From contig CACGIS010000009.1 of assembly GCA_902573175.1 (NCBI GenBank), forward strand, positions 1 to 33,796: a stretch of DNA of 33,796 nucleotides, written 5' to 3'. The position numbers were made by a program, and so were the translations under genes. This stretch comes from Paracoccaceae bacterium (GTDB lineage: Bacteria; Pseudomonadota; Alphaproteobacteria; Rhodobacterales; Rhodobacteraceae). Position 1 is the stretch's first letter; every line of letters begins with the position of its first letter. A model generated the notes under the pieces. The model was not told the DNA's origin. It searched no databases and saw nothing but the letters and a program-made list of their open reading frames with translations. Shown in pieces: positions 19,142 to 33,796 of this stretch.

Positions 19142-19226
19142 AAGAATTTGACATTAGTCAGATTTGTAGAATACGCTATTACCTAACGTCAATTTATTGT
19201 TGATGCTTTTTTTGGGGGTAACAAGC

Positions 19227-21815
19227 ATGAGTTTTAATCGTTTTTACGTCATAAGTCCATTGGCTTTAGTCGCTTTATCAGCCTGTAGATCACCTTATCA
19301 AAATGCGGTAAGTGGGGTTATCAGTAAGGGCCCTCTTAGCAATGCATTAGTATTCTTAGATTTAGATGGCGATAACGTATTAGACGCCAATGAGCAGTCC
19401 GTCAGAACAGACGCTAATGGTAATTTTTCCATAAATTCGGCGGCTTCTGCTTATAAAATTGTGGCTTTAACCGATGATAGTACCGTAGATTCTTCATCTG
19501 GAGCTACATTATCAGGAATAATGTTAACTGCGCCTCAGGGTGCTGCGGTTGTTTCGCCTACGTCGACATTAATGGCAGAAGGTGGTTTGACAGCTGATGA
19601 GGTCGCAGAAGTTTTAAACCTGCCAGACGGTGTAGATCCTTTGGCATTCAATCCATTTGCTGACGGTGTTGACGCTACTGATGCGTTGGCAGTTGAGAAA
19701 ATAAGCCAACAAATCATGACAGCAGTAAGTTCATTTGCATCTGCTGCAGAAGGAGCGGGTGCTTCTGAGGCAGGTGCGTTCGAGGCTGCGCTGACATCTG
19801 TTGTTGATGTTGTTAAAGTAAAAGCTGTAAATTTAACTGACGATACGGCAACTGCCGCAGAAAAATCGATAGACTTTACGGCCGCCGCTGACTTAAATTT
19901 GATTAAGGCAAAAGTTGCTGATGAAGCGGAGAAAGTTGTAACTGCGGAAGGTACATCAGGATTTAATAAGACGGCTTTGGCAGCTCTTGTTGACGATACT
20001 GCGACATCAATTAAAAATGTAAACGATCAAATTGAAGCTGTTGCAGATTTGACATCTGACGCAACCAAAAACGTCTTTTCCACCCTGCAAGTTTTAAATG
20101 AACAAGTGAAATCGGCAGCGGAAACGCAAGCGGGCGGTGGAAGCGGTTCAATAGCCTTTACAAACGCTGCAACTGTGCAAAGTGCAGCGAGCAATTTTGC
20201 ACCGCAAGATGTTACTATTTCTGCCAACTCAATTTTGGAGGGGACTAAAGATTTAGTTATAGGGTCACTTGCGACGGTCGATCAAGATCAGGGAAGTGGT
20301 GTCGCCTTTACCTACAAGTTAGCTGAGGCCGTGGGTACCGATTACGCCTCATTTGAAATTAATTCTAATAATGAATTAGTTCTCAAAGCGTCTCCTGATT
20401 ATAGTGCAAAGTCTTCCTATGAAGTATTTGTCGTGACGACAGACGATGGCGGTAAGACATTTTCTAAGAAAATAGAAGTTTCGGTAACACCTGACCCGCA
20501 CGAAAATTTTCTTGTGAAATTCACCGTCAATTATGTTGTCCCTGGCGACGTCGGAGCCGAGTATAATACCATATTAACTAGTTCAGAAACCAACTATGAA
20601 GAGTTTATGAGTAGGTTGCATACCAATATGGATTCGTTTGAGGGTGCAATGAGCATAATATTTCCCGACGACGGTCCAGGCGAAGGTGTTTCTGAAGGAT
20701 CAGGAGCGTACAGTGGCAACGATTTAGATTTCTCTTCAATGACTTATGCACAGCAATTTGCTCTTCTAGGCAGTGGTTTTACAGCGCCAACTGTTTCGGA
20801 GGATATATCTGCTGGTACATTTACTGTTACCTTTACTGAACCAAGTTCATCAGGCAATATTTTGCATAAATACACAGTAAAAATAGACGGTCTCACAGCG
20901 GTTTCGAGCAATAATTATGGTGGTCTTGATAAAAATGGGGATAGCGTTGACTACTTTGATCCTTTAACCTGGAAAGTTGCTGGTGGGCTTGAGCAAATGA
21001 TTATCAAAAAGGGTACCGCTAGCGTTTTTGAGGTTAATGTAACTGACACCTCAATGGAAATTGAAGCGGAGGTTGGTTTTGCCACTGACTATGCTAATGG
21101 TGATGTGGGTGCCATTTTAATGGAAGGTGATTTTTCTCAAACAGACGCAGACAGCTTTTTTGATATAATCGATCAATTGAGTTTAGATCCAAGTAGTTCT
21201 TCTAGTTCTTCTAGTTCTTCTAGTTCTTCTAGTTCTTCTAGTTCCTCTCATAGTCTGTCTGGCAGCAGCTATTCATCCAGTAGTGGTTCTTCTTCCAGTA
21301 GTTCAGCGCCTAACTACACCATAGCAACGGTTAAAATTTACGGGGCGGATAGTAGTCAATCAAATGGTTTGACAGCAGAGCCTGTCGGAATTGGTACACT
21401 AGGCACGGGATCGTTATCCCTTCAGTTAGGTGATTACACGATGTCGATTATTTCAGACGATTTACCTGATTATATTACAGCGGGAGATATTTTTGATTTT
21501 GCGGATGTGGATCTTCTCGACGTTGAGGATGTAATTCAGGAAGGCAATGACGGTCTATTCACTCTTAGCCATGCAACGCACGGCGAGTTGGTTATTATCG
21601 AGTCTGATATGTCAAATGCGCCAGCGGGAGGTACGGTCACAATTGGAGATGGCGATACTTTTGGAACTTACGAAGGAAACAGGTTCGTTTCTGACTCTAA
21701 CGACATCGTAGCCGCCTATTTTGATTTTGGTGAACTTACAGTCAGTGACGCTCAGTTTCAAACCTATTGGGAATCAATCGATGGCATTACTGATATGTTT
21801 GCGGAAATCGCTTAA
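19227..21815 (+). CDS. Large surface-type lipoprotein with polyserine linker (paralogue 2)
   Basis: ATG 19227 is chosen over an in-frame start at 19197, because it gives an N-terminus that aligns with paralogue 1 and lies 11 bases after GGGGG. The product is 862-863 residues. The lipobox is ALSAC (Cys20). The EF-hand-like loop DLDGDNVLDANE (45-56), the block VDSSSGATLSG, the helical region ending near 310 and the cadherin-like domain (about 325-425) all match paralogue 1. The middle and C-terminal parts do not. A polyserine linker (about 657-700), coded by a 9-bp tandem repeat, joins a C-terminal beta-rich domain of about 165 residues that I do not recognise. It is probably exported and lipid-anchored; the role (adhesion, matrix) is inference. 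Confidence 0.8.
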   Translation: MSFNRFYVISPLALVALSACRSPYQNAVSGVISKGPLSNALVFLDLDGDNVLDANEQSVRTDANGNFSINSAASAYKIVALTDDSTVDSSSGATLSGIMLTAPQGAAVVSPTSTLMAEGGLTADEVAEVLNLPDGVDPLAFNPFADGVDATDALAVEKISQQIMTAVSSFASAAEGAGASEAGAFEAALTSVVDVVKVKAVNLTDDTATAAEKSIDFTAAADLNLIKAKVADEAEKVVTAEGTSGFNKTALAALVDDTATSIKNVNDQIEAVADLTSDATKNVFSTLQVLNEQVKSAAETQAGGGSGSIAFTNAATVQSAASNFAPQDVTISANSILEGTKDLVIGSLATVDQDQGSGVAFTYKLAEAVGTDYASFEINSNNELVLKASPDYSAKSSYEVFVVTTDDGGKTFSKKIEVSVTPDPHENFLVKFTVNYVVPGDVGAEYNTILTSSETNYEEFMSRLHTNMDSFEGAMSIIFPDDGPGEGVSEGSGAYSGNDLDFSSMTYAQQFALLGSGFTAPTVSEDISAGTFTVTFTEPSSSGNILHKYTVKIDGLTAVSSNNYGGLDKNGDSVDYFDPLTWKVAGGLEQMIIKKGTASVFEVNVTDTSMEIEAEVGFATDYANGDVGAILMEGDFSQTDADSFFDIIDQLSLDPSSSSSSSSSSSSSSSSSSSHSLSGSSYSSSSGSSSSSSAPNYTIATVKIYGADSSQSNGLTAEPVGIGTLGTGSLSLQLGDYTMSIISDDLPDYITAGDIFDFADVDLLDVEDVIQEGNDGLFTLSHATHGELVIIESDMSNAPAGGTVTIGDGDTFGTYEGNRFVSDSNDIVAAYFDFGELTVSDAQFQTYWESIDGITDMFAEIA
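21195..21248 (+). repeat. 9-bp tandem repeat encoding polyserine
   Basis: Five perfect copies of AGTTCTTCT (21195-21239) and a sixth with one change (21240-21248) lie in frame and encode Ser-Ser-Ser each. Copy-number change would alter linker length without a frameshift. Confidence 0.95.
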
Positions 21816-21818
21816 AAT

Positions 21819-23330
21819 TCACGAAAACAGGCTTTTGAATTCTTCTCTAAGTATGTTTTTTTGTACTTTGCCCATTGTATTGCGCGGTAATTGATCGATC
21901 CAAAGAAGTTTTCTCGGGTGTTTATAGCGAGCTAAAGATTTACTTAGATTGCTCTCAATAATTTCTAAGTCAGGAGCTGTTTCGGTTTCTGATACAATAA
22001 CAGCGATTGGCGTTTCTCCAAAATCAGGGTGGGGCACTCCAATTACAGCACTTTCAAGTACACCTACTTGATCATCTATAATTTCTTCGAGTTCTTTGGG
22101 ATATATATTATACCCACCCGAAATTATAAGATCTTTATCTCTTCCAAGAATATGGACATAACCATCCTCATCAATTTTTCCTAAGTCACCCGTTATGAAA
22201 AAGCCATTTTCCCGTAATTCGGCTTTTGTTTTTTCGGGCATTTTCCAATAACCCTTAAAAACGTTTGGTCCACGCACTTCAATTTGCCCTATTTCATCAA
22301 TAGATAATTCTTTTGCTGTTTCTGGGTCGCTGATTTTTAATTCAACGCCTGGTAAGGGTAAGCCAACGGTTCCCGCGCGCCTCTCACCATTATATGGATT
22401 TGAAGTATTCATATTTGTCTCTGTCATGCCATACCGCTCAAGTATTCTATGGCCCGTTATTTTTTCGAATTGAATATGCGTCTCTGAAAGAAGCGGAGCA
22501 GAGCCAGAGACAAACAAACGCATGTGTTCAACTAAATTCTTGTTAAAACGACTATCGCCAAGTAACCGCGTATAAAATGTCGGCACACCCATCATCGCAG
22601 AAGATTTTGGTAAATTTTCGATAATATTATCTAAATCAAATTTTGGTAGAAATATCATACTTCCACCAGCGGACAGTATAACATTAGTGGCTACAAATAG
22701 CCCATGAGTATGAAAGAGGGGAAGTGCATGAAGCAAGATGTCGTTATTGGTGAATCCCCACTCTTTCATCAATGTATTACCATTTGATAAAAGATTAGTC
22801 TGTGTCAGCATTGCGCCTTTGGATTTTCCAGTTGTTCCGGAGGTATAAAGCAGTGCCGCTAAGTCGTTTTTTGATCGCGCCACCGTTTCAAAATCTTCAG
22901 GTGAGGAGGCTGCTTTATCAATGATTGAACCTGTTGAATTACTATTTAAAGTTTCAACAAGCACGCCAAGTTTTTGAGCTATAGTTGATAAATCTTTTTT
23001 ATTTTTTTCATCACAAATAATTAAACGGGCTTCGCTGTTTTCAATGAAATACTTAACTTCATCGACTGTGTAGGAGGGGTTAAGAGGTAAAAATACTAAT
23101 CCAGCCTGAGCGCATGCCGCATAGATATTGAGCATTTCAGGAGATTTTTCAACTTGTATCGCAACGCAGCACCCAGGTTCTAGACCCATTTCAACCAATG
23201 TATTCGCAATTCTTCTGCTCGTTGCCAAAAATTTCCTGTAAGTAATATTCTGACCGTCCAGCAAATATAAGAAAGGAGCATCGTTTTCTAAATGTACTCC
23301 AAATAGCTTATCATATAAAAGATTGTTCAT
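21819..23330 (-). CDS. matB: Malonyl-CoA synthetase (AMP-forming)
   Basis: The protein is an ANL-superfamily adenylate-forming ligase of 503 residues from ATG 23330. A GTG seven codons upstream is less likely, since GAGAG sits just before the ATG and MatB proteins start at MNNLLYDKLF-like sequence. The P-loop is LLYTSGTTGKSKG, followed by LPLFHTHGLF. The segment ERYGMTETNMNTSNPYNGER followed by RAGTVG is the MatB signature, where arginines bind the second carboxylate of malonate. The end has ITGDLGKIDEDGYVHILGR and PRNTMGKVQKNILRE with the catalytic lysine. Known role: malonate + CoA + ATP to malonyl-CoA. It is divergent from the tct operon, with 260 bases between them. Confidence 0.88.
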   Translation of the reverse strand: MNNLLYDKLFGVHLENDAPFLYLLDGQNITYRKFLATSRRIANTLVEMGLEPGCCVAIQVEKSPEMLNIYAACAQAGLVFLPLNPSYTVDEVKYFIENSEARLIICDEKNKKDLSTIAQKLGVLVETLNSNSTGSIIDKAASSPEDFETVARSKNDLAALLYTSGTTGKSKGAMLTQTNLLSNGNTLMKEWGFTNNDILLHALPLFHTHGLFVATNVILSAGGSMIFLPKFDLDNIIENLPKSSAMMGVPTFYTRLLGDSRFNKNLVEHMRLFVSGSAPLLSETHIQFEKITGHRILERYGMTETNMNTSNPYNGERRAGTVGLPLPGVELKISDPETAKELSIDEIGQIEVRGPNVFKGYWKMPEKTKAELRENGFFITGDLGKIDEDGYVHILGRDKDLIISGGYNIYPKELEEIIDDQVGVLESAVIGVPHPDFGETPIAVIVSETETAPDLEIIESNLSKSLARYKHPRKLLWIDQLPRNTMGKVQKNILREEFKSLFS

Positions 23331-23512: not shown

Positions 23513-23542
23513 TGTGCGATGTCAGTTTTATGTCATCGCACA
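23513..23542. promoter_or_regulatory. Perfect 9-bp inverted repeat upstream of tctC (candidate operator)
   Basis: TGTGCGATG (23513-23521) and CATCGCACA (23534-23542) are exact reverse complements separated by 12 bases. The site lies about 48 bases before the tctC start, in the divergent matB-tctC region. It is GC-rich in an AT-rich gap, as expected for a dimeric regulator site such as GntR or IclR types, but the regulator is not in the window. It could also form a leader hairpin. Confidence 0.5.
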
Positions 23543-23590: not shown

Positions 23591-24619
23591 ATGAAGTTAA
23601 ACTTTAAAAAACAATTTTCAACATTAGCTCTTGTGACTGGTTTTGCAGCTACTGCAAGCATGTCACTAGCAGGCGAGTGTCGAGTGGCCGAAGCTAGCAT
23701 GGATAAGCCAGGTGGTTTTCCAGACCGAGCTTTAACAATGATCGTTCCTTATGGTCCAGGTGGAGGATCAGGACAGGTTGCAGCAGCAATGGCTGAAGCA
23801 GTAACAGGACTTACCGACGTAAGTATAAATAGAGATCACAAGCCTGGTGGTTCTGGAACAGTCGGAATGACTGCCTATATGGCTGCACCTGCTGATGGTT
23901 ACAATGTTTTAGAGCACATTGATGATGCGTCTTCAGCCCATGCGCTCGACTCTAGTCGACCTAACCCCGCTGAGGATTTAATACCGCTCGTGGTTTCACA
24001 GGTGACTTTTTCGCAAATTTACATCAGATCAAATGAAACGCGCTATACTGATTGGCCGAGTTTTGTAGAATGGGTACAAGCGCAAAATGGAAAAGCAACA
24101 ATCGCTAACGTATCTAAAGAAGGATCAATGGAACGCGTTATTATGAAGTTCATCACTGAAGCTTCTGACATGCAAATTCAGCAGATTTCTTTTGATAAAG
24201 GTGCTCCACGGTATGGTGCTTTATTAGGTGGTCAAGTTGATGCCTTATTTGAGCAACCTGGTGATGTTAGAAAATTTCTAGATGCCGGAAACTTTAAGCC
24301 TATCTTAACAGTTTTCAATGAGCGGCCTGGCGTCTTTAGTGATGTGCCTACTCATAGAGAAATGGGTATGGATTTTGAGCCGTTACTTCGTTTTAGAGGT
24401 TTTTACGTCCACAAGGATGCGCCTTCTGACCGTGTAGATTGGTTGAAGTGGGCTTTTCAAAGGGCATATTGCGAGGATAGTTATCAAGCATTCAATGATA
24501 GCAAGTTTATGAATGTTATTGATAGTTATCGGGATACGGCTGGTGCGATCGATATGATCAACGCAGCGATTGTTCAATATCGTGATGTTTATAAAGAAAT
24601 GGGTTTAGACGTTAAGTAA
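23591..24619 (+). CDS. tctC: TTT transporter periplasmic solute-binding protein (TctC family)
   Basis: The protein is 342 residues from ATG 23591, chosen because GGAGG (23581-23585) sits five bases upstream; an earlier in-frame start at 23519 lacks this and would bury the signal peptide. The signal peptide (cleavage near SLAGE) is followed by FPDRALTMIVPYGPGGGSG, the substrate-loop signature of TctC-type proteins, and PADGYNVLEHI. These proteins bind carboxylates or other organic anions in the periplasm and deliver them to TctA/TctB. The substrate cannot be read from the sequence; the genes downstream suggest a CoA-activatable acid, possibly an organosulfonate. A strong hairpin lies between this gene and tctB. 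Confidence 0.9.
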   Translation: MKLNFKKQFSTLALVTGFAATASMSLAGECRVAEASMDKPGGFPDRALTMIVPYGPGGGSGQVAAAMAEAVTGLTDVSINRDHKPGGSGTVGMTAYMAAPADGYNVLEHIDDASSAHALDSSRPNPAEDLIPLVVSQVTFSQIYIRSNETRYTDWPSFVEWVQAQNGKATIANVSKEGSMERVIMKFITEASDMQIQQISFDKGAPRYGALLGGQVDALFEQPGDVRKFLDAGNFKPILTVFNERPGVFSDVPTHREMGMDFEPLLRFRGFYVHKDAPSDRVDWLKWAFQRAYCEDSYQAFNDSKFMNVIDSYRDTAGAIDMINAAIVQYRDVYKEMGLDVK

Positions 24620-24638
24620 TATTTTCGTGGGAATTCAT

Positions 24639-24664
24639 CCGCTCGCGACAAATGTCGCGGGCGG
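24639..24664 (+). terminator. Strong hairpin between tctC and tctB
   Basis: CCGCTCGCGACA (24639-24650) pairs with TGTCGCGGGCGG (24653-24664) over up to 12 bp with one T-G pair; the innermost pairs must open for a 4-base loop. There is no U tract after it (TATTAAGTTATG). This fits a partial terminator or a 3' RNA-stabilising hairpin that raises binding-protein levels above membrane subunits. Confidence 0.65.
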
Positions 24665-24687
24665 TATTAAGTTATGTGAAGTGAAAA

Positions 24688-25245
24688 ATGGGAAAATTGA
24701 GTAGATCAGATATTTTAGAGGCATTTTTTTGGCTTTTAATTGCTGTTATTTTCTTTGCAGTGAGCTTTAGTTTTAATCAACCAATAGAAATTTATAAATT
24801 TGGTGCAACGGGCTGGCCTAGGGTAATATTATTTTTGATGGCTCTGGTCGCTTTAGGTAATTTTTACCATGCTTATTCTAAAGGCTCTAAGGCTCAAGAA
24901 GGTCGAGTGGGTGCAAAAGAAAATGATGAGCCAATTGAATACACGTCCACTGGTCAGTACTTCAAAACGGGTATGGTTTTAATATTACCTCTACTGTATG
25001 CCTTGTCATTAAAGCCAGTAGGTTTTTACTCGGGAACTCCAATTTTTATAGCTTTAATAATGATAGCGTGGGGCGAAAGAAGAGTTCGTTTCATACTAAC
25101 AAATACAATCTTGATTTATGCAATTCTAATTGGTTTGTTTATGCTTGTTTTAAATGCTCCATTGCCTCAGGGGAATATGTCTCCTTTCTATGATATAAGT
25201 GCATTTATGCTAAAAACGAAAACGCAATTAGATCAGATGTTTTGA
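24688..25245 (+). CDS. tctB: TTT transporter small membrane subunit (TctB family)
   Basis: The 185-residue protein has about four membrane helices: AFFWLLIAVIFFAVSFSF, GWPRVILFLMALVALGNF, GMVLILPLLYALSLKPVGF and NTILIYAILIGLFMLVLNAP. A hydrophilic loop lies around 75-92. Size, topology and position between tctC and tctA match TctB (DUF1468). With TctA it forms the ion-coupled permease in the inner membrane. It lies 9 bases before tctA. Confidence 0.9.
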   Translation: MGKLSRSDILEAFFWLLIAVIFFAVSFSFNQPIEIYKFGATGWPRVILFLMALVALGNFYHAYSKGSKAQEGRVGAKENDEPIEYTSTGQYFKTGMVLILPLLYALSLKPVGFYSGTPIFIALIMIAWGERRVRFILTNTILIYAILIGLFMLVLNAPLPQGNMSPFYDISAFMLKTKTQLDQMF

Positions 25246-25254
25246 TGGCTTGGT

Positions 25255-26745
25255 ATGATTGAAAATTTTTTAGCCGGTACTGCTACGCTTTTTGGAGATC
25301 CTTTCACCATAGGTATTTTTGTTTTTGGTGTTTTGGGGGGTATGCTTTTTGGAGCAATACCAGGTGTAAGTATGCTTACCCTAGCTGCAATTCTGCTTCC
25401 TTTTACAGCGGATCTTTCACCTGCTCAGGGTGTAATGTTGTTTGCTGTCATTTACTGTACAGGGACTTATGGAGGGGCCATTACGGCAATTTTGTTTAAT
25501 ATTCCTGGTGCACCGGAAAATGCGCCGACTGCGTTTGACGGTTATCCGATGACGCAAAAGGGTATGGCTGGAAAGGCTGTGGGTGCAGCGGTTCTATGCT
25601 CTGCAATAGGAGGTGTTGCTTCTGCATTAGTAATGATGAGCGCAACGGAGCCGCTTGCACAGTGGGCTATCATGAACATTGGGCCACCAGAAATTTTTGC
25701 ATTAGTTTTTTTTGGATTGGCGGTGGCGTCATCTGTTGGGGGAAGAACAATATGGAAAGGATGGCTTTCAGTTCTACTTGGACTCTTAATCGCTACTATA
25801 GGTCAAGATCCAGTAGGTGGAATTAATCGTTTTAATTTTGGATACTCTGATTTAGCGGCGGGAATAGCCTTTGTGCCCGCCATTCTAGGTTTTTTTGCGG
25901 TCTCAGAAATATTTATTCAGGCTGAAAAAAATGTAAGTGGAAAATATTCGGCTCCAAAGTTCAATGTTGATTTTCCATCATTTTTAGAATTATGGGCTCA
26001 TAAAATAGCTGTTGTTCGGTCTATTTTTGTAGGCTTTTTCTGTGGTATTTTACCTGGTATTGGAGCCACGTTGGCTGCTTTCATGGGGTATGGAGAAGCA
26101 GTTAGATGGTCAAAAAATAAATCTGAGTTTGGTACAGGAAAACTGGAGGGTGTTATTTCCTCCGAAACGGCGAACAACGCTGCAACTGGTGCGGCAATGA
26201 TTCCATTGTTGGCTTTGGGCCTTCCTGGTGGTGCATTGACAGCAATGATGGTCGCAGTTTTTCAAATGCATGATTTAGAACCTGGACCTTTGGTTTTTTA
26301 CAATTCTCCTGAACTTATTTGGATAGTATTTGCAGCTATGTTCTATGCAAATCTCTCAATTTTATTTGTTGGGTTAATAGAGACAAAAACAATTTTATAC
26401 TTATTGAAAATTCCTTTTCAGTTTCTTGCTCCTATGATCCTTATGCTGGCGAGTATAGGCGCTTATATAAGCCGTGGCTTAGTACTGGATGTCATCGTGA
26501 TGTTCATTGCTGGAATTATAGGATTTTTACTGCGTCGCTCAGGCTACTCAATTCCAGGTATTGTCTTGGGCTTAATTTTAGGAAAAATAGGAGAGCAGAA
26601 TTTTGCCCAGGGTATGCAAATGGTTCACTACGATTTGGGGACTTACTTTTCCCGTCCAATTTGTACAATATTGATTGTAGCTGGGGTTCTAACTCTTTTA
26701 AAAAGTTTGCATTCTGCGTTCTTCCAAAAGTCTAAAGTTACATAA
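25255..26745 (+). CDS. tctA: TTT transporter large permease subunit (TctA family)
   Basis: The 496-residue protein has the usual length and about 11-12 membrane helices. Typical TctA motifs are GAIPGVSMLTLAAILLPFT near residue 35, the YGGAITAILFNIPGAPENAP segment split around 75-95, and the second half-repeat GILPGIGATLAAFMGYG (about 263-280) with ALGLPGGALTAMM. This is the transport channel for the substrate brought by TctC. Its strand, order and close spacing make it part of the tct operon. Confidence 0.95.
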   Translation: MIENFLAGTATLFGDPFTIGIFVFGVLGGMLFGAIPGVSMLTLAAILLPFTADLSPAQGVMLFAVIYCTGTYGGAITAILFNIPGAPENAPTAFDGYPMTQKGMAGKAVGAAVLCSAIGGVASALVMMSATEPLAQWAIMNIGPPEIFALVFFGLAVASSVGGRTIWKGWLSVLLGLLIATIGQDPVGGINRFNFGYSDLAAGIAFVPAILGFFAVSEIFIQAEKNVSGKYSAPKFNVDFPSFLELWAHKIAVVRSIFVGFFCGILPGIGATLAAFMGYGEAVRWSKNKSEFGTGKLEGVISSETANNAATGAAMIPLLALGLPGGALTAMMVAVFQMHDLEPGPLVFYNSPELIWIVFAAMFYANLSILFVGLIETKTILYLLKIPFQFLAPMILMLASIGAYISRGLVLDVIVMFIAGIIGFLLRRSGYSIPGIVLGLILGKIGEQNFAQGMQMVHYDLGTYFSRPICTILIVAGVLTLLKSLHSAFFQKSKVT

Positions 26746-26760
26746 ATTAGGATAGTTTTT

Positions 26761-28170
26761 ATGACTAACTCTGCAGAGATTGATGAAATAGATCTTCTGG
26801 TTAATAGGGCACGAATTGCTCAGGAGAAATTTGAAAAAAATGGTTCACAGCAGCTTTTTGATTTAGCTTGTCAAGCGGTTGGTTGGGCCCTTATGAAACC
26901 TGAACAAAACCAAAGACTGGCGGAGATTGCTGTTAGGGAAACAGGTCTTGGAAATGTTCCAGATAAAATTAAAAAAAACCATAATAAAACTTTAGGACTG
27001 TTAAGAGATATAAAAGACATAAAATCTTTTGGCCATGTTTCTGAAGATAAGGAGATGGGTCTCAGTACATACTTAAGGCCGAAGGGTGTGGTTGCTGCTA
27101 TTGTTCCATCTACTAATCCATTAGCTACTCCCATAAATAATATTATAAATGCTTTAAAATGTGGAAACTCGATTATAGTTGCTCCATCACCAAAGGGCGC
27201 GCAGCCGCTTAAAGAGCTGTTGTTATTAATCCATCAAAATCTTTCGATGATAGGCCTAGATCAGGATTTGGTCCAAATGGTGCCGGTGCCTCCAACTAAA
27301 GGAAAAACAAATAGGCTTATGCAACTCGCTGACATGCTGGTCGTTACGGGTTCACAAAATAATGTTAAAGCTGGATATTCATCAGGAACCCCAGCTCTAG
27401 GTGTCGGTCAAGGTAATGTTGTCACAATAATCGATGAAACAGCTGATACGCAGGCAGCCGCTAAAAAAATAGCAATTTCAAAGACTTTCGATAATGCCAC
27501 CTCATGTTCCTCAGAAAATTCCGTAATTGCTATTGAAGAAGTTTATGATGAAACAGTGAAATTTCTTAGCGATGAAGGGGGATTGCTTTTAAATAAAGAT
27601 GAGGCCGACCGGCTTATCGATATCCATTGGGAAAATGGAAAAATGACCGCAGATCTTTTAGCTCAAGATATAGACGTAATAATTGATAAGGTTGGTTTAA
27701 GACAAAGAGCAGGCGAAAATACAAAGTTTCTTATTTTGCCTACGAATAAAGCTGGTCCAAGTGAAGTAGTTTGTGGAGAAAAAATGTCGCGTTTCTTAAC
27801 CTTATACAAAGTTAAGAAATTTTCTGAAGCTATTGAATTAGCTATAAAAATACAAGAATATCAAGGGGCAGGGCACTCTTTGGGTATACATACACAAAAT
27901 GAAGACAGAGCACATGAAATCGCCATGTCAGCCAAAACTTGCAGGGTTATTGTAAATCAAGCCCACTGTTTTGCTACTGGTGGGTTTTTTAATAATGGTC
28001 TTCCTTTTTCCCTGTCTATGGGATGTGGAAGCTGGGGCGGTAATTCAATAGATGGAAATCTTAATTGGGAGCATTTTGTCAATAAAGTAAGAGTTGTCCA
28101 AACAATAGAGGAAAATAAGCCAGATTTAGAGGAGATTTTTGGAAATTACTGGGGGGAAACTTCTCAGTGA
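26761..28170 (+). CDS. sauS: CoA-acylating aldehyde dehydrogenase, SauS-like (sulfoacetaldehyde dehydrogenase candidate)
   Basis: The 469-residue protein belongs to the CoA-acylating branch of the ALDH superfamily, seen from VPSTNPLATPINNIINALK in the middle, SGTPALGVGQGNVVTIID (about 208-225) and the catalytic cysteine in FDNATSCSSENS (Cys249). The FDxATSCSSENS form is the one I associate with SauS, the NADP-dependent sulfoacetaldehyde dehydrogenase (acylating) of Cupriavidus necator, rather than with AdhE or EutE. In that pathway it reduces sulfoacetyl-CoA to sulfoacetaldehyde. The ligase gene overlaps its stop by four bases (GTGA), and the TTT genes precede it. Other acyl-CoA reductions (oxalyl-CoA to glyoxylate, malonyl-CoA to the semialdehyde) remain possible. 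Confidence 0.75.
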   Translation: MTNSAEIDEIDLLVNRARIAQEKFEKNGSQQLFDLACQAVGWALMKPEQNQRLAEIAVRETGLGNVPDKIKKNHNKTLGLLRDIKDIKSFGHVSEDKEMGLSTYLRPKGVVAAIVPSTNPLATPINNIINALKCGNSIIVAPSPKGAQPLKELLLLIHQNLSMIGLDQDLVQMVPVPPTKGKTNRLMQLADMLVVTGSQNNVKAGYSSGTPALGVGQGNVVTIIDETADTQAAAKKIAISKTFDNATSCSSENSVIAIEEVYDETVKFLSDEGGLLLNKDEADRLIDIHWENGKMTADLLAQDIDVIIDKVGLRQRAGENTKFLILPTNKAGPSEVVCGEKMSRFLTLYKVKKFSEAIELAIKIQEYQGAGHSLGIHTQNEDRAHEIAMSAKTCRVIVNQAHCFATGGFFNNGLPFSLSMGCGSWGGNSIDGNLNWEHFVNKVRVVQTIEENKPDLEEIFGNYWGETSQ

Positions 28171-29717
28171 GCGAAATCAAGTTTCCAGAAACAATTGGCG
28201 ATCAGATTCTATATAATTCTTGTAAATTTCCTGAAGCGGTTTGGCTTATTTCACCAGAAACTAATCAAACAATAAGTTTTCGAGAAGTTAATGAAACTAT
28301 TTCCACAATTGGGCAAAAATTAATTGAGACGGGTATTGAGCGCGGCTCAAGTATAGCTATAGCTGCGCCCAATAGCCCTGCGTCTTGTTTAATGTTCATG
28401 GCTATCGTTTCTTCCGGATTTGTGGCTGTTCCGTTGAATTTAGTCGCTGGAAGTACAATTTTAGCTTATACAATTGAACATTCTGAGGCCAAATTTATTT
28501 TTGTAGCAGACGATTGCAGAGATCTGATCGCTTCAGCGGTAGCTCAACAAAACAATAGCGTGAAATTAGTAAAGCTTGATCCAGTTAGGGGGCCAGATTT
28601 GGCCGCACTCCCTTTGGAAGTAAACGATTTGAAATTAGAAGATATCAAGTCAAAAGCCAATGATATTGCTCTACTCATGTATACCTCAGGAACAACAGGA
28701 AAACCTAAGGGCGTTATGTTGAGCCATGCAAATTTACTGGCTGCAGGTCGATTTATTTCTACCGGTCATGAAATAGATGGAAATGATAGTGGTCTGTGTG
28801 TACTGCCAATTTATCATATAAATGGAATGTGTGTTACTGTCATGGGCACAATTGTATCGGCGAGCACGTTAGTTATTCCTCACAAATTTTCCGTAAATTC
28901 ATTTTGGAAGATTATAGCTAAGTTTAAGTGCTCTTGGTTTTCGGCAGTGCCTACTCAATTTTCCTATATTTTAAATTATGAGGAAACTCCGGAGGACATA
29001 TCATCCCTTCGTTTTGCTCGCTCTGCTTCTGCTCCATTATCACCTGATATTCATAAAAAATTTGAAAAGCGGTTTAATATCCCAATCATTGAAACTATGG
29101 GATTAACAGAAACGGGATCTCAGATAACGACAAACCCGATGCCGCCGGGAGAACGTAAAATTGGATCTCCAGGAAAGGCTTATGGTAACCAGATTATGAT
29201 TGGTGATGATCAATATAAAGCATTATCCGCAGGTGAAACGGGAGAAATATTGGTCAAGGGCGATAATGTTATGCAGGGGTATTTCAAACAACCTGAGGAA
29301 ACGCACGAAACAATTTTAGGAAATGGTTGGCTGCGCACAGGTGATTTAGGGTATTTGGATAATGATGGCTATGTATTTGTGTCGGGCAGAATAAAGGAAT
29401 TAATCATAAAGGGTGGTGAAAATATTGCTCCGAGAGAAATTGATGAAGCGCTGCTGACCCATCCAGGTATATTAGAGGCTGCGGCTTTTGCGGTTCCGTG
29501 TAAAGATTACGGAGAAAGAGTTGAAGCCTGCGTTTGTCTTAAAGAAAAAGTGTCTGTTGAGTTGGCCGAGTTAATAAGCCATTGTGAAAGTCAAATTGGA
29601 AAATTTAAGTCTCCTGATAACATTCATATCGTTGTTGATCTGCCCAAGGGACCGTCAGGAAAGGTGCAGCGATTAAAATTATTTGAATTGATTTATGATA
29701 ATCAAAATAAACAGTAA
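28167..29717 (+). CDS. AMP-forming acyl-CoA ligase, SauT-like (sulfoacetate-CoA ligase candidate)
   Basis: The 516-residue ANL-superfamily ligase starts at a GTG within the GTGA that ends the aldehyde dehydrogenase gene, so translation is coupled. The P-loop is MYTSGTTGKPKGVML (171-185), then LPIYHINGM, METMGLTETG-like ETMGLTETGSQ and NPMPPGERKIGSPG, and the C-terminal lysine motif LPKGPSGKVQRLKL. The family includes sulfoacetate-CoA ligase (SauT) and oxalyl-CoA synthetase. Paired with the SauS-like gene it would give acid to acyl-CoA to aldehyde. It is clearly different from the MatB on the other strand, lacking the RAGTVG motif (here RKIGSPG). Confidence 0.75.
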   Translation: MSEIKFPETIGDQILYNSCKFPEAVWLISPETNQTISFREVNETISTIGQKLIETGIERGSSIAIAAPNSPASCLMFMAIVSSGFVAVPLNLVAGSTILAYTIEHSEAKFIFVADDCRDLIASAVAQQNNSVKLVKLDPVRGPDLAALPLEVNDLKLEDIKSKANDIALLMYTSGTTGKPKGVMLSHANLLAAGRFISTGHEIDGNDSGLCVLPIYHINGMCVTVMGTIVSASTLVIPHKFSVNSFWKIIAKFKCSWFSAVPTQFSYILNYEETPEDISSLRFARSASAPLSPDIHKKFEKRFNIPIIETMGLTETGSQITTNPMPPGERKIGSPGKAYGNQIMIGDDQYKALSAGETGEILVKGDNVMQGYFKQPEETHETILGNGWLRTGDLGYLDNDGYVFVSGRIKELIIKGGENIAPREIDEALLTHPGILEAAAFAVPCKDYGERVEACVCLKEKVSVELAELISHCESQIGKFKSPDNIHIVVDLPKGPSGKVQRLKLFELIYDNQNKQ

Positions 29718-29753
29718 ATTCTCATCCTTAACGCTAGTTGAATATCAAGTGAT

Positions 29754-30524
29754 ATGAACGAAGATATTTGGAATATTTTGTTTCCTTCAAGTGATATAAA
29801 CATACTTGTTTTTATGCTTTTTGTCTTCTTTCTTTCTGGAATTGTTAAGGGTTTTCTGGGAATTGGGCTGCCTGCCGCTGCAATGGCACTGCTCACTTTA
29901 GTAATACCTCCCGCACAAGCGATTTCATTACTTGTTATCCCAATTTTATTTACAAACCTAACGCAATTTTCGCGCGCTAAATACCGGATTGAGTCAATTA
30001 AGACTTATTGGTTATTTGCCATTGCGATAATTTTTAGTATTTTTTTAACGTCACTTTTTCTATCAAAATACCCAACTGGACTGCTCACAATCTCTATTGG
30101 CTTAGCAATGGTAATTGTATCCTTAAATGGTCTGATCGGTATAAAATTAAAAATAAGCGAAAGGAGATCTTGGCAGGTTGGTTTTGGGGTTTTGTCTGGG
30201 GTTCTTGGTGGCTTAAGTTCAATTTGGTCACCAACGGTCGCAATTTATCTAATTGCGAGAAGGGTAGATAAAGACCGGTTTATTTCAGCAACAGGATTTC
30301 TTTTTTTAGCAGGAGCAGTGCCATTAATTTTTGGGCTAATTTTTGGTGGGGTGTTAACTAAAGAGGTGGCGATTCAGTCTATATTTGGGTTAGTATTTGT
30401 TCTCGCTGGTTTTAGGGTTGGTGAGATACTTCGAAATAAAACGTCCCAAAGCTGGTTCGAGAAAGCTGTTTTAATTGCTTTTCTTTTTATGGGAATACGT
30501 CTAATTGGTGTGGGTCTATTTTAA
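29754..30524 (+). CDS. TauE/SafE family sulfite/anion exporter
   Basis: The 256-residue membrane protein has about eight helices in two halves, each opening with a glycine-rich motif: LSGIVKGFLGIGLPAAAMAL (about 22-42) and VLSGVLGGLSSIWSPTVAIY (about 143-162). This fits the TauE/SafE (DUF81) family. Members export sulfite or other small anions, and are commonly found in taurine, isethionate and sulfoacetate operons to remove sulfite left by desulfonation; others have unrelated roles. It starts 36 bases after the ligase and its TAA overlaps the converging dehydrogenase gene's stop within a shared TTAA. Confidence 0.88.
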   Translation: MNEDIWNILFPSSDINILVFMLFVFFLSGIVKGFLGIGLPAAAMALLTLVIPPAQAISLLVIPILFTNLTQFSRAKYRIESIKTYWLFAIAIIFSIFLTSLFLSKYPTGLLTISIGLAMVIVSLNGLIGIKLKISERRSWQVGFGVLSGVLGGLSSIWSPTVAIYLIARRVDKDRFISATGFLFLAGAVPLIFGLIFGGVLTKEVAIQSIFGLVFVLAGFRVGEILRNKTSQSWFEKAVLIAFLFMGIRLIGVGLF

Positions 30525-33430
30525 TTATTCATTAACTGTCTATCTAATAGTCTGGCGACGTGGATAGGTTCCCTCTTAGTTCCATCTTTAATCTGACTTC
30601 TGCATGATGTACCATCGGCGATTAGAATGGTTTCTTTTTCTGCTTGTCTTATCTTTGGAAACAGATCTTTCTCAGCCATTTCTATTGAAAAATCTATAGT
30701 TTCTTTTGAGTACCCAAAAGCACCTGCCATTCCACAACAACTTGTCTCGATTTTCTCGACCTCAAGCTCTTGTATCAAATGAAGTACGTTCTCAACAGAT
30801 TTCAGCACATTAAAAGCTTTTTGATGGCAGTGACCATGCAATAAGGCTTTTGCTTTTAAGGGTTTAAGCTTAAGGAGTTTTTTGTCTTTTGATAACAGTT
30901 CTTCAAAAGTAATCACATTCTCTGCAACAAGCTTCGCGTCATTCGTTTTTAATAGGGATGGAATTTCATCTTTTAGTGCGAATAGGCATGAGGGCTCCAA
31001 ACCCACTATGGGTAAACCCCTTTTAGCGTAAGGAAGGTATGTTTTGACTAACCTTTCAGCAGCTTCTTTTGCTTTAGAAATATTTCCAACGGATAGATGG
31101 GTTTTACCACAGCATAAAGCTTTTTGACTTTTCTCTTCTGGTTTTGGATAGAAAGGTTGATAGCCTGCATTGCGTAAAACTCTCACCGCGCTCCGTAAAT
31201 TTTCTGGTTCAAAATATCTATTAAATGTATCAACAAATAATATAACTGGGTATTGCTCAACGGGATCTGCAGAAACTTCGTGGTCGCGATACCAATCTGT
31301 TCTCCATACTGGAAGATTTCTTTGCGCAGAAAATCCGGTGAGCCGTTCACTGATTTTGGCAAGAATTTTTGAGGAATTGCGCAAGTTCAAAATTTTATTG
31401 AACGAAGAAGCTAAAGGAGCATAGTCGGGAAGATAAGCGATTAGTCTTTCTTGAATTGATAAAGAATTATATTTAGCGTTTAGTGCCATTACTTCTAATT
31501 TCATCGCTGACATATCTACACTTGTGGGGCATTCACGTTTGCAAGCTTTGCAAGAAACGCATAATTTCATGGTTTCCAACATCTCTGTTGATGCCATCGC
31601 GTTTGGACCTAATTGACCAGACATTGCCAGCCTCAGGCTATTAGCTCTTCCGCGCGTACTATCTTTTTCTTCACCGGTAATTCTAAAAGAGGGGCACATA
31701 ACACCTCCCTTTAATTTCCTACAGGCGCCATTATTATTACACATTTCAACGGCGCCTTGAAAGCCGCTGGCACTACCTGGCCACCTAGACCAATCCAACT
31801 CTGTATGAAAGCCACTGACAGAGTAACCCGGTGAAAATCTGAACAGATGGCGGTCATCCATTTTTGGGGCATCTACGATTTTTCCAGGATTAAAAATTCC
31901 ATGTGGGTCCATTAAAGATTTAATTTCTCTAAATGCGTTAGTTAGCTTTTTTCCAAACATAACGGGATTAAATTCTGAGCGAGAAATTCCATCACCGTGT
32001 TCGCCCGAGTGCGAGCCATTAAATTTTTTTACAAGCTCGAAAGCTTCACTAGCTATCGAGCGCATTTTTATGATATCTCTGTCATCTTTCATGTTTAATA
32101 CTGGTCGTACATGTAAGCAGCCTACAGACGCATGCGCGTACCAGGTACCTGAAGTTTGATACTTATCAAAAATATCAGTCAAACCTTGCGTGTATTCTGC
32201 CAGATTATGCAGCGGTACTGCACAGTCTTCCACAAACGAAACAGGTTTAGCATCTGATTTCATTGACATCATAATATTTAAGCCGGATTTTCGCATTTCA
32301 GAAATCCGATTTTGTGATTTTTCATCCTCAATGACTACAATACTATTAATTGTATTATCTGATGTGTCTTTAAGTAAGACCTCTAAGTCTCTTACTTTTT
32401 TAAGATTTCCACTCCAAATATCCTCTGCAAACTCAACGACTAAAAGCGCCTCAGGATCATTAACAACAAAATCATCAATAGTTTTAGAAAAAATGGGTAT
32501 TGATCGCCCAAGCGAGATCATTGTGCTATCAATTAATTCAACAGCTATTGGGTCGAATTTAACAATGTGCTGGGCTGAATCCATTGCCTCATAAAATGTG
32601 GAGAAGTGACAAAGAGCCATAATCTTCGGTGGAGGTAGTGGAGATAATTTCAGTTCAATACTTGTTGAGTAAGCTAGGGTCCCCTCAGAACCGACAATCA
32701 AATGAGATAAATTTATATCGTTTTCATTACCGATACTACCTGGCCTAGAAGCAAGCGTATCAGGTAATAAGGCATCTAAATTATATCCTCCAACTCTTCT
32801 AAGAACTTTTGGGTACCTAGTTTCGATTTCCTTTTGATTTTTCTCAGCAATTTTTATTAATTTTGGAAATACTTTTTCTAATCCACTTAGATCCTTTCTT
32901 GCCAGTCCGAAGTGTGCCTTTGAACCATCCGATAAAATTGTATTTATCGACAATACATTGTCTCTCATTATGCCGTATCGAATGGACCGACCACCAGCTG
33001 AATTATTACCAGCCATTCCACCAATGGTAGCCCTGCTGGATGTTGAAACATCAACTGGAAACCAGAGGCCGAATGGCTTCAATTCTCGGTTCAGTTCATC
33101 GAGAATAACGCCAGGTTCCACCACACATCTCAGGTTTTTTTCATCAATCTCAATTATTTTATTTAAATACTTGCTATTATCTAAAACAATCGCTTGATTT
33201 ACAGTCTGTCCATTCTGTGAGGTTCCACCACCTCTTGGCAATATTGGGGTACTGTATTCTTGAGAAAATTGAATGGTTTTTTGTATATCCTCTACTGTTT
33301 TTGGCAAAACGACTGCCTCAGGCATTATCTGGTAAATAGAAGCATCTGTTGAATAACGTCCGCGGTCAAATTGTCCGTCCAGAAGATCGCCAGATAGAGA
33401 ACTTTTTAAAACTGAAATCTCCGATTTCAT
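30521..33430 (-). CDS. FAD- and Fe-S-dependent 2-hydroxyacid dehydrogenase (D-lactate / D-2-hydroxyglutarate type, YdiJ-like)
   Basis: The 969-residue protein fuses three modules. The first is a FAD-binding type 4 domain (about 35-215, with ILPRGGGTSQNG) and FAD-oxidase C-terminal domain to about 530 (SVGCLHVRPVLNM and HSGEHGDGISR). Iron-sulfur parts follow: CNNNGACRK..GGVMCPSFR and CVSCKACKRECPTSVD (Cys624 onward). The C-terminal CCG-type cysteine modules carry ALCCGKTHLS and CHQKAF..CCGMAGAFG. This is the layout of YdiJ/Dld-type enzymes that oxidise D-2-hydroxy acids and feed electrons to quinone. Start 33430 is chosen because GAAGGT lies just before it; an in-frame ATG at 33448 would place that site inside the gene. 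Substrate unknown; it may be D-lactate, D-2-hydroxyglutarate, glycolate or sulfolactate. Confidence 0.82.
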   Translation of the reverse strand: MKSEISVLKSSLSGDLLDGQFDRGRYSTDASIYQIMPEAVVLPKTVEDIQKTIQFSQEYSTPILPRGGGTSQNGQTVNQAIVLDNSKYLNKIIEIDEKNLRCVVEPGVILDELNRELKPFGLWFPVDVSTSSRATIGGMAGNNSAGGRSIRYGIMRDNVLSINTILSDGSKAHFGLARKDLSGLEKVFPKLIKIAEKNQKEIETRYPKVLRRVGGYNLDALLPDTLASRPGSIGNENDINLSHLIVGSEGTLAYSTSIELKLSPLPPPKIMALCHFSTFYEAMDSAQHIVKFDPIAVELIDSTMISLGRSIPIFSKTIDDFVVNDPEALLVVEFAEDIWSGNLKKVRDLEVLLKDTSDNTINSIVVIEDEKSQNRISEMRKSGLNIMMSMKSDAKPVSFVEDCAVPLHNLAEYTQGLTDIFDKYQTSGTWYAHASVGCLHVRPVLNMKDDRDIIKMRSIASEAFELVKKFNGSHSGEHGDGISRSEFNPVMFGKKLTNAFREIKSLMDPHGIFNPGKIVDAPKMDDRHLFRFSPGYSVSGFHTELDWSRWPGSASGFQGAVEMCNNNGACRKLKGGVMCPSFRITGEEKDSTRGRANSLRLAMSGQLGPNAMASTEMLETMKLCVSCKACKRECPTSVDMSAMKLEVMALNAKYNSLSIQERLIAYLPDYAPLASSFNKILNLRNSSKILAKISERLTGFSAQRNLPVWRTDWYRDHEVSADPVEQYPVILFVDTFNRYFEPENLRSAVRVLRNAGYQPFYPKPEEKSQKALCCGKTHLSVGNISKAKEAAERLVKTYLPYAKRGLPIVGLEPSCLFALKDEIPSLLKTNDAKLVAENVITFEELLSKDKKLLKLKPLKAKALLHGHCHQKAFNVLKSVENVLHLIQELEVEKIETSCCGMAGAFGYSKETIDFSIEMAEKDLFPKIRQAEKETILIADGTSCRSQIKDGTKREPIHVARLLDRQLMNN

Positions 33431-33570
33431 TTTTACCTTCAAACTCATTTATTTAAATAATATAAATTAGCATAACTGGCGGTATTGAAAGTACAACTTT
33501 TATCCTAATAATGCGGCGAAAGGGGCCAAGAGGCTCAGGCGCATTCAATTTAATAGAATGGTAATTCGAA

Positions 33571-33796
33571 ATGTCACAGAAATATAAAACAGGACGGCAC
33601 TTACTTCAAATACCTGGTCCAACGAATGTTCCAGATAGAATTTTAAGAGCTATGGATTATCCTACTATTGACCACCGTGGTGAAGAATTTTTTAGTTTGG
33701 CAAAAAAATGCTTATCTGGCATTAAAGATATTTTTAAGACTGAAAGCAATGTCATAATTTATCCAGCCTCAGGTACGGGTGCTTGGGAGGCCGCTC
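33571..33796 (+). CDS. Serine-glyoxylate aminotransferase-like class V enzyme (N-terminal part, cut by window end)
   Basis: The first 75 residues follow the SgaA/AGXT family: GRHLLQIPGPTNVPDRILRA, the strand and loop IDHRGEEFF, and IIYPASGTGAWEAA, which lines the cofactor phosphate. Known role: transfer of the amino group of serine or alanine to glyoxylate, giving glycine. The PLP lysine lies beyond the window. It is divergent from the 2-hydroxyacid dehydrogenase with about 140 bases between starts, and may share regulation with it. No strong ribosome site precedes ATG 33571. Confidence 0.85.
   Translation, partial: MSQKYKTGRHLLQIPGPTNVPDRILRAMDYPTIDHRGEEFFSLAKKCLSGIKDIFKTESNVIIYPASGTGAWEAA

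What the first reader, a model, noticed from the sequence alone, without database searches (positions are those of the whole stretch)
23591..30524. Candidate organosulfonate (sulfoacetate) operon that uses a TTT transporter instead of SauU
Seen: tctC-tctB-tctA, an acylating aldehyde dehydrogenase with a SauS-type FDNATSCSSENS site, a GTGA-coupled AMP-forming ligase, and a TauE/SafE exporter, in order on one strand. Known: in Cupriavidus necator the sau operon degrades sulfoacetate by SauT (sulfoacetyl-CoA formation) and SauS (reduction to sulfoacetaldehyde), with uptake by the MFS permease SauU; TauE-type exporters clear sulfite in sulfonate pathways. Inference: this is a marine version with a tripartite tricarboxylate transporter for uptake. 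I know of no described sulfoacetate system with TTT uptake, and sulfonates are abundant in the sea. The Xsc desulfonating enzyme would have to lie elsewhere.
Basis: partly seen in the sequence, partly recalled or inferred. Interest (0 to 1): 0.72.

Follow-up and report, generated by a model that had tools for sequence, protein, structure and literature searches.

The report
Marine sulfoacetate uptake and breakdown operon
A marine Rhodobacteraceae bacterium carries a six-gene set that most likely imports the sulfur compound sulfoacetate with a tripartite transporter and starts its breakdown; the arrangement is real and probably correctly read, but this type of gene set has already been described and is common in its relatives.

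Summary
In detail: tctC-tctB-tctA-sauS-sauT-tauE lie in order on the + strand at 23591-30524. The dehydrogenase passes NCBI's curated cut-off for SauS (625.5 against 600 bits). A sulfoacetate role is well supported by comparison. Related loci join a TTT and sauS to xsc (G177, G014, L125, L135). The nearest relative (97% SauS) has xsc and pta elsewhere. One TctA clade serves two separate SauS lineages, as expected if they share a substrate. Against: no locus of the window's own SauS lineage had xsc beside it, and Xsc is absent from the window's assembly; that assembly is 58.8% complete and lacks nearly all of the relative's 18-kb xsc region. The claimed novelty does not hold: sauST + TTT hybrids were reported from sponge symbionts in 2025 (PMC12625764), with a TTT (SauXYZ) in Bilophila cited there. 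Of the 80 best named SauS loci, 77 have a TctA gene nearby. New here: several TTT lineages, their exchange, a TauE companion of this lineage, and its spread to SAR116 and Rhizobiaceae. No biochemistry was possible.

The parts
23513..23542 (.). inverted repeat TGTGCGATG-12 bases-CATCGCACA upstream of tctC; candidate operator
   Evidence: 9-bp arms in the window; arms identical in L055, L058 and, read by eye, L056; one arm mismatch in L057 and L059 (by eye); lost in L060 and not seen in the more distant loci. Function not tested.
23591..24619 (+). tctC: periplasmic solute-binding protein of a tripartite tricarboxylate transporter
   Evidence: Pfam TctC; 78-99% identical in type A loci where it is present
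24688..25245 (+). tctB: small membrane subunit
   Evidence: Pfam TctB
25255..26745 (+). tctA: large membrane subunit
   Evidence: Pfam TctA 425 bits; in the 'type A' clade of the TctA tree, SH-aLRT 97
26761..28170 (+). sauS: CoA-acylating sulfoacetaldehyde dehydrogenase
   Evidence: NCBIfam NF047625 625.5 bits, cut-off 600; Cys249 of FDNATSCSSEN invariant in 12 of 12
28167..29717 (+). sauT: AMP-forming sulfoacetate-CoA ligase (inferred)
   Evidence: Pfam AMP-binding; HINGxC shared with 25 of 25 other SauT-type ligases aligned, two of them in loci with xsc
29754..30524 (+). tauE: TauE/SafE-family anion exporter, probably for sulfite (inferred)
   Evidence: Pfam TauE 77.5 bits; a relative lies beside the operon in 18 of 19 type A-like loci with room to see it
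30521..33448 (-). neighbour, convergent: YdiJ-like FAD/Fe-S dehydrogenase; probably not part of the operon
   Evidence: 540 bits to the YdiJ model, cut-off 1350; not found in L107, L110, L111, L112, L114
21819..23330 (-). neighbour, divergent: malonyl-CoA synthetase MatB; not part of the operon
   Evidence: NF005702 784 bits, cut-off 558; the listed ORF runs to 23351, the start at 23330 is my choice; not found beside the operon in L061, L062, L106, L107, L109-L111

Best explanation
The operon imports and begins to break down sulfoacetate. TctC catches sulfoacetate in the periplasm and TctAB carry it in. SauT activates it with ATP and CoA to sulfoacetyl-CoA (AMP-forming). SauS reduces this to sulfoacetaldehyde. 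Xsc, encoded elsewhere (seen in relatives, not found in this incomplete assembly), splits it into acetyl phosphate and sulfite; Pta makes acetyl-CoA. Sulfite leaves through TauE or is oxidised by a SoeABC-like enzyme. Shown: gene order, family membership, the relatives' genes. Inferred: substrate, direction, and the link to Xsc in this cell.
For: SauS equivalog cut-off met. In a family sample of 198, Xsc passes its cut-off in 29 of 33 SauS-positive genomes against 94 of 165 others (Fisher p 0.0007, not corrected for kinship). In G177 xsc follows sauT by about 40 bases; in G014 the order is tctCBA-sauS-two ADP-ligase genes-xsc. L135 (Paracoccus onubensis) has sauS-sauT-TTT-xsc; L125 has tctB-tctA-sauS-CoA transferase-xsc-pta on one contig. 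G203 (SauS 97%) has aminotransferase, MocR-type regulator, xsc, pta, TauE, molybdenum enzyme, Fe-S protein, DmsC in a row. Type A TctA is one clade while the SauS beside it falls in two; one SauS clade for all type A rows is rejected, p-AU 4e-6. A TauE gene accompanies the type A operon.
Against: No Xsc in the own assembly, in G205 (69% complete), or in the genomes of L107, L108 and L113 (completeness not told), all carriers of this operon type; nor over the cut-off in SauS-positive G032 (93% complete) and G181 (86%). In the genus Xsc does not track SauS: 7 of 9 carriers and 7 of 7 non-carriers have it. No locus in the window's SauS clade showed xsc beside it; the operons with xsc belong to other SauS clades. 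The window's SauS ranks 32nd of the 33 over the cut-off. The ligase meets no curated model among the 25 shown, and its best solved relatives are oxalate-CoA ligases. No assay.
Confidence: 0.78

Rival explanations
1. Oxalate use: the ligase makes oxalyl-CoA and the dehydrogenase reduces it to glyoxylate, which the neighbouring class V aminotransferase and FAD oxidase handle.
For: The best solved relatives of the ligase are three oxalate-CoA ligases. Next to the operon lie a YdiJ-like oxidase and an aminotransferase nearest BhcA (453 bits, cut-off 650, tested on the L055 copy); the oxidase is kept in the 8 genus loci and in L090 and L094.
Against: The dehydrogenase passes the SauS cut-off. All 26 aligned ligases, including those of L069 and L135 which have xsc nearby, read HING where the 3 solved oxalate ligases read HVHG. 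The oxidase is not found beside the operon in L107, L110, L112 and L114, where TauE remains.
Confidence: 0.07
2. Another small sulfonate or dianion (for example 3-sulfopropionate or malonate) is the true substrate of this lineage, with the same chemistry.
For: Identity of the window's SauS to SauS of xsc-linked operons is only 44-55%; no operon of its own SauS clade has xsc beside it.
Against: The type A transporter clade also serves SauS that lie in the clade holding the xsc-linked L069, L125 and L135.
Confidence: 0.11
3. The enzymes run the other way: sulfoacetaldehyde is oxidised to sulfoacetate, which a TauE/SafE-type exporter releases (compare the SqwD-SqwKL route in PMC12890257, passages seen).
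For: The TauE/SafE family is named for both sulfite and sulfoacetate export (recalled).
Against: The ligase is of the AMP-forming family, which favours CoA-ester formation (general knowledge); an importer stands first in the operon.
Confidence: 0.04

Closest known systems
Hybrid sauST + TTT clusters of sponge symbionts (mSystems 2025, PMC12625764; passages and section 16 seen)
   Same: sauS and AMP-type sauT beside a tripartite tricarboxylate transporter, read as sulfoacetate uptake and dissimilation; the paper also reports sauST in 4 of 99 non-sponge bins.
   Different: Sponge-associated; sequences not compared here, and the orders named there (Puniceispirillales, Rhodobacterales) may include close kin of this operon. 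TauE does not occur in its main text.
Bilophila wadsworthia sauSCD with SauXYZ (J Biol Chem 2023; not held; known through passages of PMC12625764 and PMC12890257)
   Same: SauS and a TTT for sulfoacetate.
   Different: ADP-forming ligase SauCD; isethionate and IseG cleavage instead of Xsc.
Cupriavidus necator H16 sau genes (J Biol Chem 2010; not held; known through passages of PMC12625764)
   Same: SauS and SauT.
   Different: MFS permease SauU instead of a TTT.
SlcHFG, TTT for sulfolactate in Roseovarius nubinhibens and Chromohalobacter salexigens (review PMC5812351, passages)
   Same: TTT assigned to a sulfonate in a marine roseobacter.
   Different: C3 substrate; sequences not compared here.

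Membership tests
Sulfoacetate (sau) pathway, C. necator type | acylating sulfoacetaldehyde dehydrogenase SauS | tested here: met
   NF047625 625.5 bits over cut-off 600
Sulfoacetate (sau) pathway, C. necator type | AMP-forming sulfoacetate-CoA ligase SauT | tested here: inconclusive
   AMP-binding family; shares HINGxC with ligases of loci that hold xsc; no SauT model seen and no characterised SauT sequence at hand
Sulfoacetate (sau) pathway, C. necator type | Xsc in the genome | tested here: inconclusive
   none over cut-off in the 58.8% complete own assembly; 14 of 16 genomes of the genus have it
Sulfoacetate (sau) pathway, C. necator type | MFS permease SauU | tested here: not met
   TTT genes in its place; none of the 8 proteins scanned is an MFS protein
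Sulfoacetate (sau) pathway, C. necator type | sulfoacetate-dependent activity and growth | not testable with these tools
   needs assays
Hybrid sauST-TTT cluster (PMC12625764) | sauS and sauT adjoining TTT genes | tested here: met
   (sauT by inference)
Bilophila-type sauSCD | two-gene ADP-forming ligase SauCD | tested here: not met
   the window ligase is of the AMP-binding family; SauCD-like genes follow sauS in L064, L067 and several loci
Oxalyl-CoA synthetase | HVHG of the 3 solved oxalate-CoA ligases | tested here: not met
   HING in the window ligase; that this residue sets specificity is inferred

The most novel reading that the evidence does not exclude
Sulfoacetate is a common food of marine alphaproteobacteria, taken up by several distinct TTT lineages that are traded between sauS enzyme sets with different activating enzymes (AMP ligase, two-gene or fused ADP ligase, and in one contig a CoA transferase). 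The type A set (TTT, sauST, TauE) is a sulfoacetate module shared by transfer among roseobacters, SAR116 and Rhizobiaceae.
Probability: 0.5. Interest if true: 0.5.

Novelty: new member of a known kind. Interest (0 to 1): 0.36.

Why it matters
It adds planktonic marine lineages to a sulfonate pathway tested in few organisms, and shows that a TTT, not SauU, is the usual companion of sauS in the loci examined. Once one TctC is shown to bind sulfoacetate, tctC next to sauS would be a practical marker for sulfoacetate use in ocean surveys.

Tried and rejected
Malonate: the divergent MatB is not found beside the operon in seven more distant loci and is on the other strand, so it was not taken as part of the system. 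Oxalate/glyoxylate: considered because of the oxidase, the BhcA-like aminotransferase, the IclR-type regulator of L090 and the solved relatives of the ligase; set low for the reasons given. SauS-like paralogs (L063, L096-L098, 33-37% where listed) were checked as a possible false family: they fall outside (SH-aLRT 99), with acetolactate-synthase-like enzymes beside L063 and L097. The listing for oxalate-ligase pocket residues showed no paper I opened, so the HING/HVHG contrast rests on alignments only. The plasmid search gave 33 records, all under 60% identity; the listing names none as a characterised SauS. A tree with C. necator SauS or SauT was not made: no such sequence was at hand. Statements on print rest on searches in an open-licence library; the two key J Biol Chem papers are not held.

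Choices and dropped rows: the trees used 50 of 132 SauS and 44 of 130 TctA rows, quick method; the ligase alignment used 26 of 128 rows. On re-checking, confidence was lowered from 0.80 to 0.78 because no xsc-linked operon lies in the window's own SauS clade.
Full report
What is there. The window is contig C9 of a 1.53-Mb assembly of 101 contigs, 58.8% complete. Six genes stand on the + strand at 23591-30524: tctC, tctB, tctA, an acylating aldehyde dehydrogenase, an AMP-forming ligase and a TauE/SafE protein. Gaps are short: 68 bases tctC-tctB, 9 tctB-tctA, 15 tctA-sauS, a GTGA overlap sauS-sauT, 36 sauT-tauE (coordinates). The TauE gene overlaps a convergent FAD/Fe-S oxidase by 4 bases; MatB lies divergent upstream.

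The enzymes. The dehydrogenase scores 625.5 bits against NCBI's SauS equivalog model, cut-off 600. It is a low scorer: of the 33 genomes over the cut-off in a family sample of 198, it ranks 32nd. The ligase meets no cut-off among the 25 best NCBIfam families shown. Its best solved relatives are three oxalate-CoA ligases, then malonyl-CoA synthetase. In the 26 SauT-type ligases aligned, including those of L069 and L135 which have xsc nearby, HINGxC is invariant; the solved oxalate ligases have HVHG and malonyl-CoA synthetase HTHG. This separates the window ligase from oxalate ligases by sequence; the role of the residue is inferred.

Where Xsc is. The own assembly has no Xsc: its two TIGR03457 matches, 281.6 and 113.8 bits, are far under the cut-off of 676.4. 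In the genus 14 of 16 genomes have Xsc and 9 of 16 a close SauS; 7 of those 9 have Xsc (not G000 and G205), and so have all 7 others, so Xsc does not track SauS inside the genus. In the family sample it does: 29 of 33 SauS-positive genomes pass the Xsc cut-off against 94 of 165 others, p 0.0007 without correction for kinship. The four exceptions are G000, G160 (Xsc in two pieces), G032 (93% complete) and G181 (86%). Among ten further genomes with the window's transporter type, seven have Xsc and three (of L107, L108, L113) do not. In the genus of L107, 7 of 8 genomes have SauS and 5 of those 7 have Xsc. The nearest relative, G203 (SauS 97%), has a class III aminotransferase, a MocR-type regulator, xsc, pta, a TauE protein and a molybdenum enzyme with Fe-S and DmsC subunits in a row. 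Of that 18-kb stretch the own assembly holds only one 370-base match of 67%, which fits missing sequence but does not prove it.

Links to Xsc in relatives. In G177 xsc follows sauT by about 40 bases. In G014 the order is tctCBA, sauS, two genes like those of L064, which carry ATP-grasp, CoA-binding and CoA-ligase domains, then xsc. L135 (Paracoccus onubensis) has sauS, sauT, a TTT and xsc. L125 (Thalassospiraceae) has tctB, tctA, sauS (696 bits), two CoA-transferase genes, xsc (927 bits), a PF03601 membrane protein and pta. Together these make TTT + sauS + xsc a repeated combination. None of them lies in the window's own SauS clade.

Transporters. I sorted loci by their TctA. Type A is the window's. 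Type B is the commonest. Type C stands with two-gene ADP ligases in L064 and L067 and with sauST in L115. Type D is a mixed remainder under 60% identity to the others. Of the 80 named loci 77 have a TctA gene within 6.5 kb of sauS on its strand: 12 A, 60 B, 1 C, 4 D; of the other three, two are cut by contig ends and L165 has room but none. A LacI-type gene (Pfam LacI on the L069 copy) lies near sauS in 63 of the 80. Of the 33 family genomes 30 have a TctA nearby (3 A, 23 B, 2 C, 2 others, one of them, L065, on the other strand); two loci are cut and L066 has none within 6.5 kb. A TTT beside sauS is ordinary.

Exchange of modules. In the TctA tree the 19 type A rows are one clade (SH-aLRT 97). 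In the SauS tree 16 of them fall in one clade (100) with L115 and L095, while L090, L094 and L152 lie inside a group of type B and D rows (98) that also holds the xsc-linked L069, L125 and L135. Forcing all type A SauS together is rejected, p-AU 4e-6. L115 has a type C transporter with a SauS of the window's clade, and type C also occurs with xsc in L067. So the same transporter lineage serves different SauS lineages, some of them xsc-linked. The simplest reason is a shared substrate, and sulfoacetate is the best candidate. These are quick trees; L115 and L096 have long branches in the SauS tree, and the program warned of long branches in the TctA tree.

TauE and neighbours. A TauE gene related to the window's stands beside the operon in 18 of 19 type A-like loci with room to see it (window, L055-L062, L090, L094, L095, L106, L107, L110, L112-L114; not in L111); in L090 and L094 it is on the opposite strand, and in L095 the transporter genes lie beyond the contig end. 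None of the 60 type B loci showed one at the tblastn threshold used, 1e-15. The YdiJ-like oxidase is beside the operon in the genus, in L106 and in L090 and L094, but not in L107, L110, L111, L112 or L114.

What is known. PMC12625764 (abstract, passages and section 16 seen) reports putative sauST clusters with a TTT in dominant Arctic sponge symbionts, calls them a hybrid type, and cites a TTT, SauXYZ, in B. wadsworthia. The two founding papers were not held. A TTT for sulfolactate is listed in a 2018 review (passages).

Verdict. A real operon, most likely for sulfoacetate (0.78), a new member of a known kind. The added points are the breadth of TTT use, the exchange of transporter lineages, the TauE companion and the variety of activating enzymes beside sauS.

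Noticed in passing
L125 98-10279: tctB, tctA, sauS, two CoA-transferase genes (TIGR02429 and TIGR02428 over cut-off), xsc, PF03601 protein, pta: a nearly complete sulfoacetate set with a CoA transferase where SauT or SauCD would stand. Seen in this one contig only among the loci (L192 is the same contig); nearest SauS relative L193 is cut. One literature search listed no paper that I recognised as describing it; none was opened.
   Followed up: partly
L066 10033-12150: sauS followed by a single fused ADP-forming-type CoA ligase (706 aa; ATP-grasp, Succ_CoA_lig, CoA-binding domains), with no TctA within 6.5 kb.
   Followed up: no
window 23513-23542: Inverted repeat TGTGCGATG/CATCGCACA about 50-80 bases before tctC, kept in the five closest relatives (two with one mismatch), lost further away; candidate operator, regulator unknown.
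   Followed up: partly
window 21819-23330: MatB is 79-83% identical in most pairs of the seven closest genomes while SauS next door is 85-97%; yet L055-L058 share 97% and L056-L057 91% MatB, which suggests allele exchange at this flank.
   Followed up: partly
window 16145-18991 and 19197-21815: Two adjacent large lipoprotein-like ORFs of similar N-terminal sequence; the second holds a long poly-serine run.
   Followed up: no
L063, L097 (also a second copy in G198): A SauS-like dehydrogenase (33-36% identity) followed by an acetolactate-synthase-like enzyme that meets no cut-off among the 25 families shown.
   Followed up: partly
window 30521-33796; L055 13275-17497: YdiJ-like fused FAD/Fe-S oxidase divergent from a class V aminotransferase nearest BhcA but under its cut-off.
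   Followed up: partly
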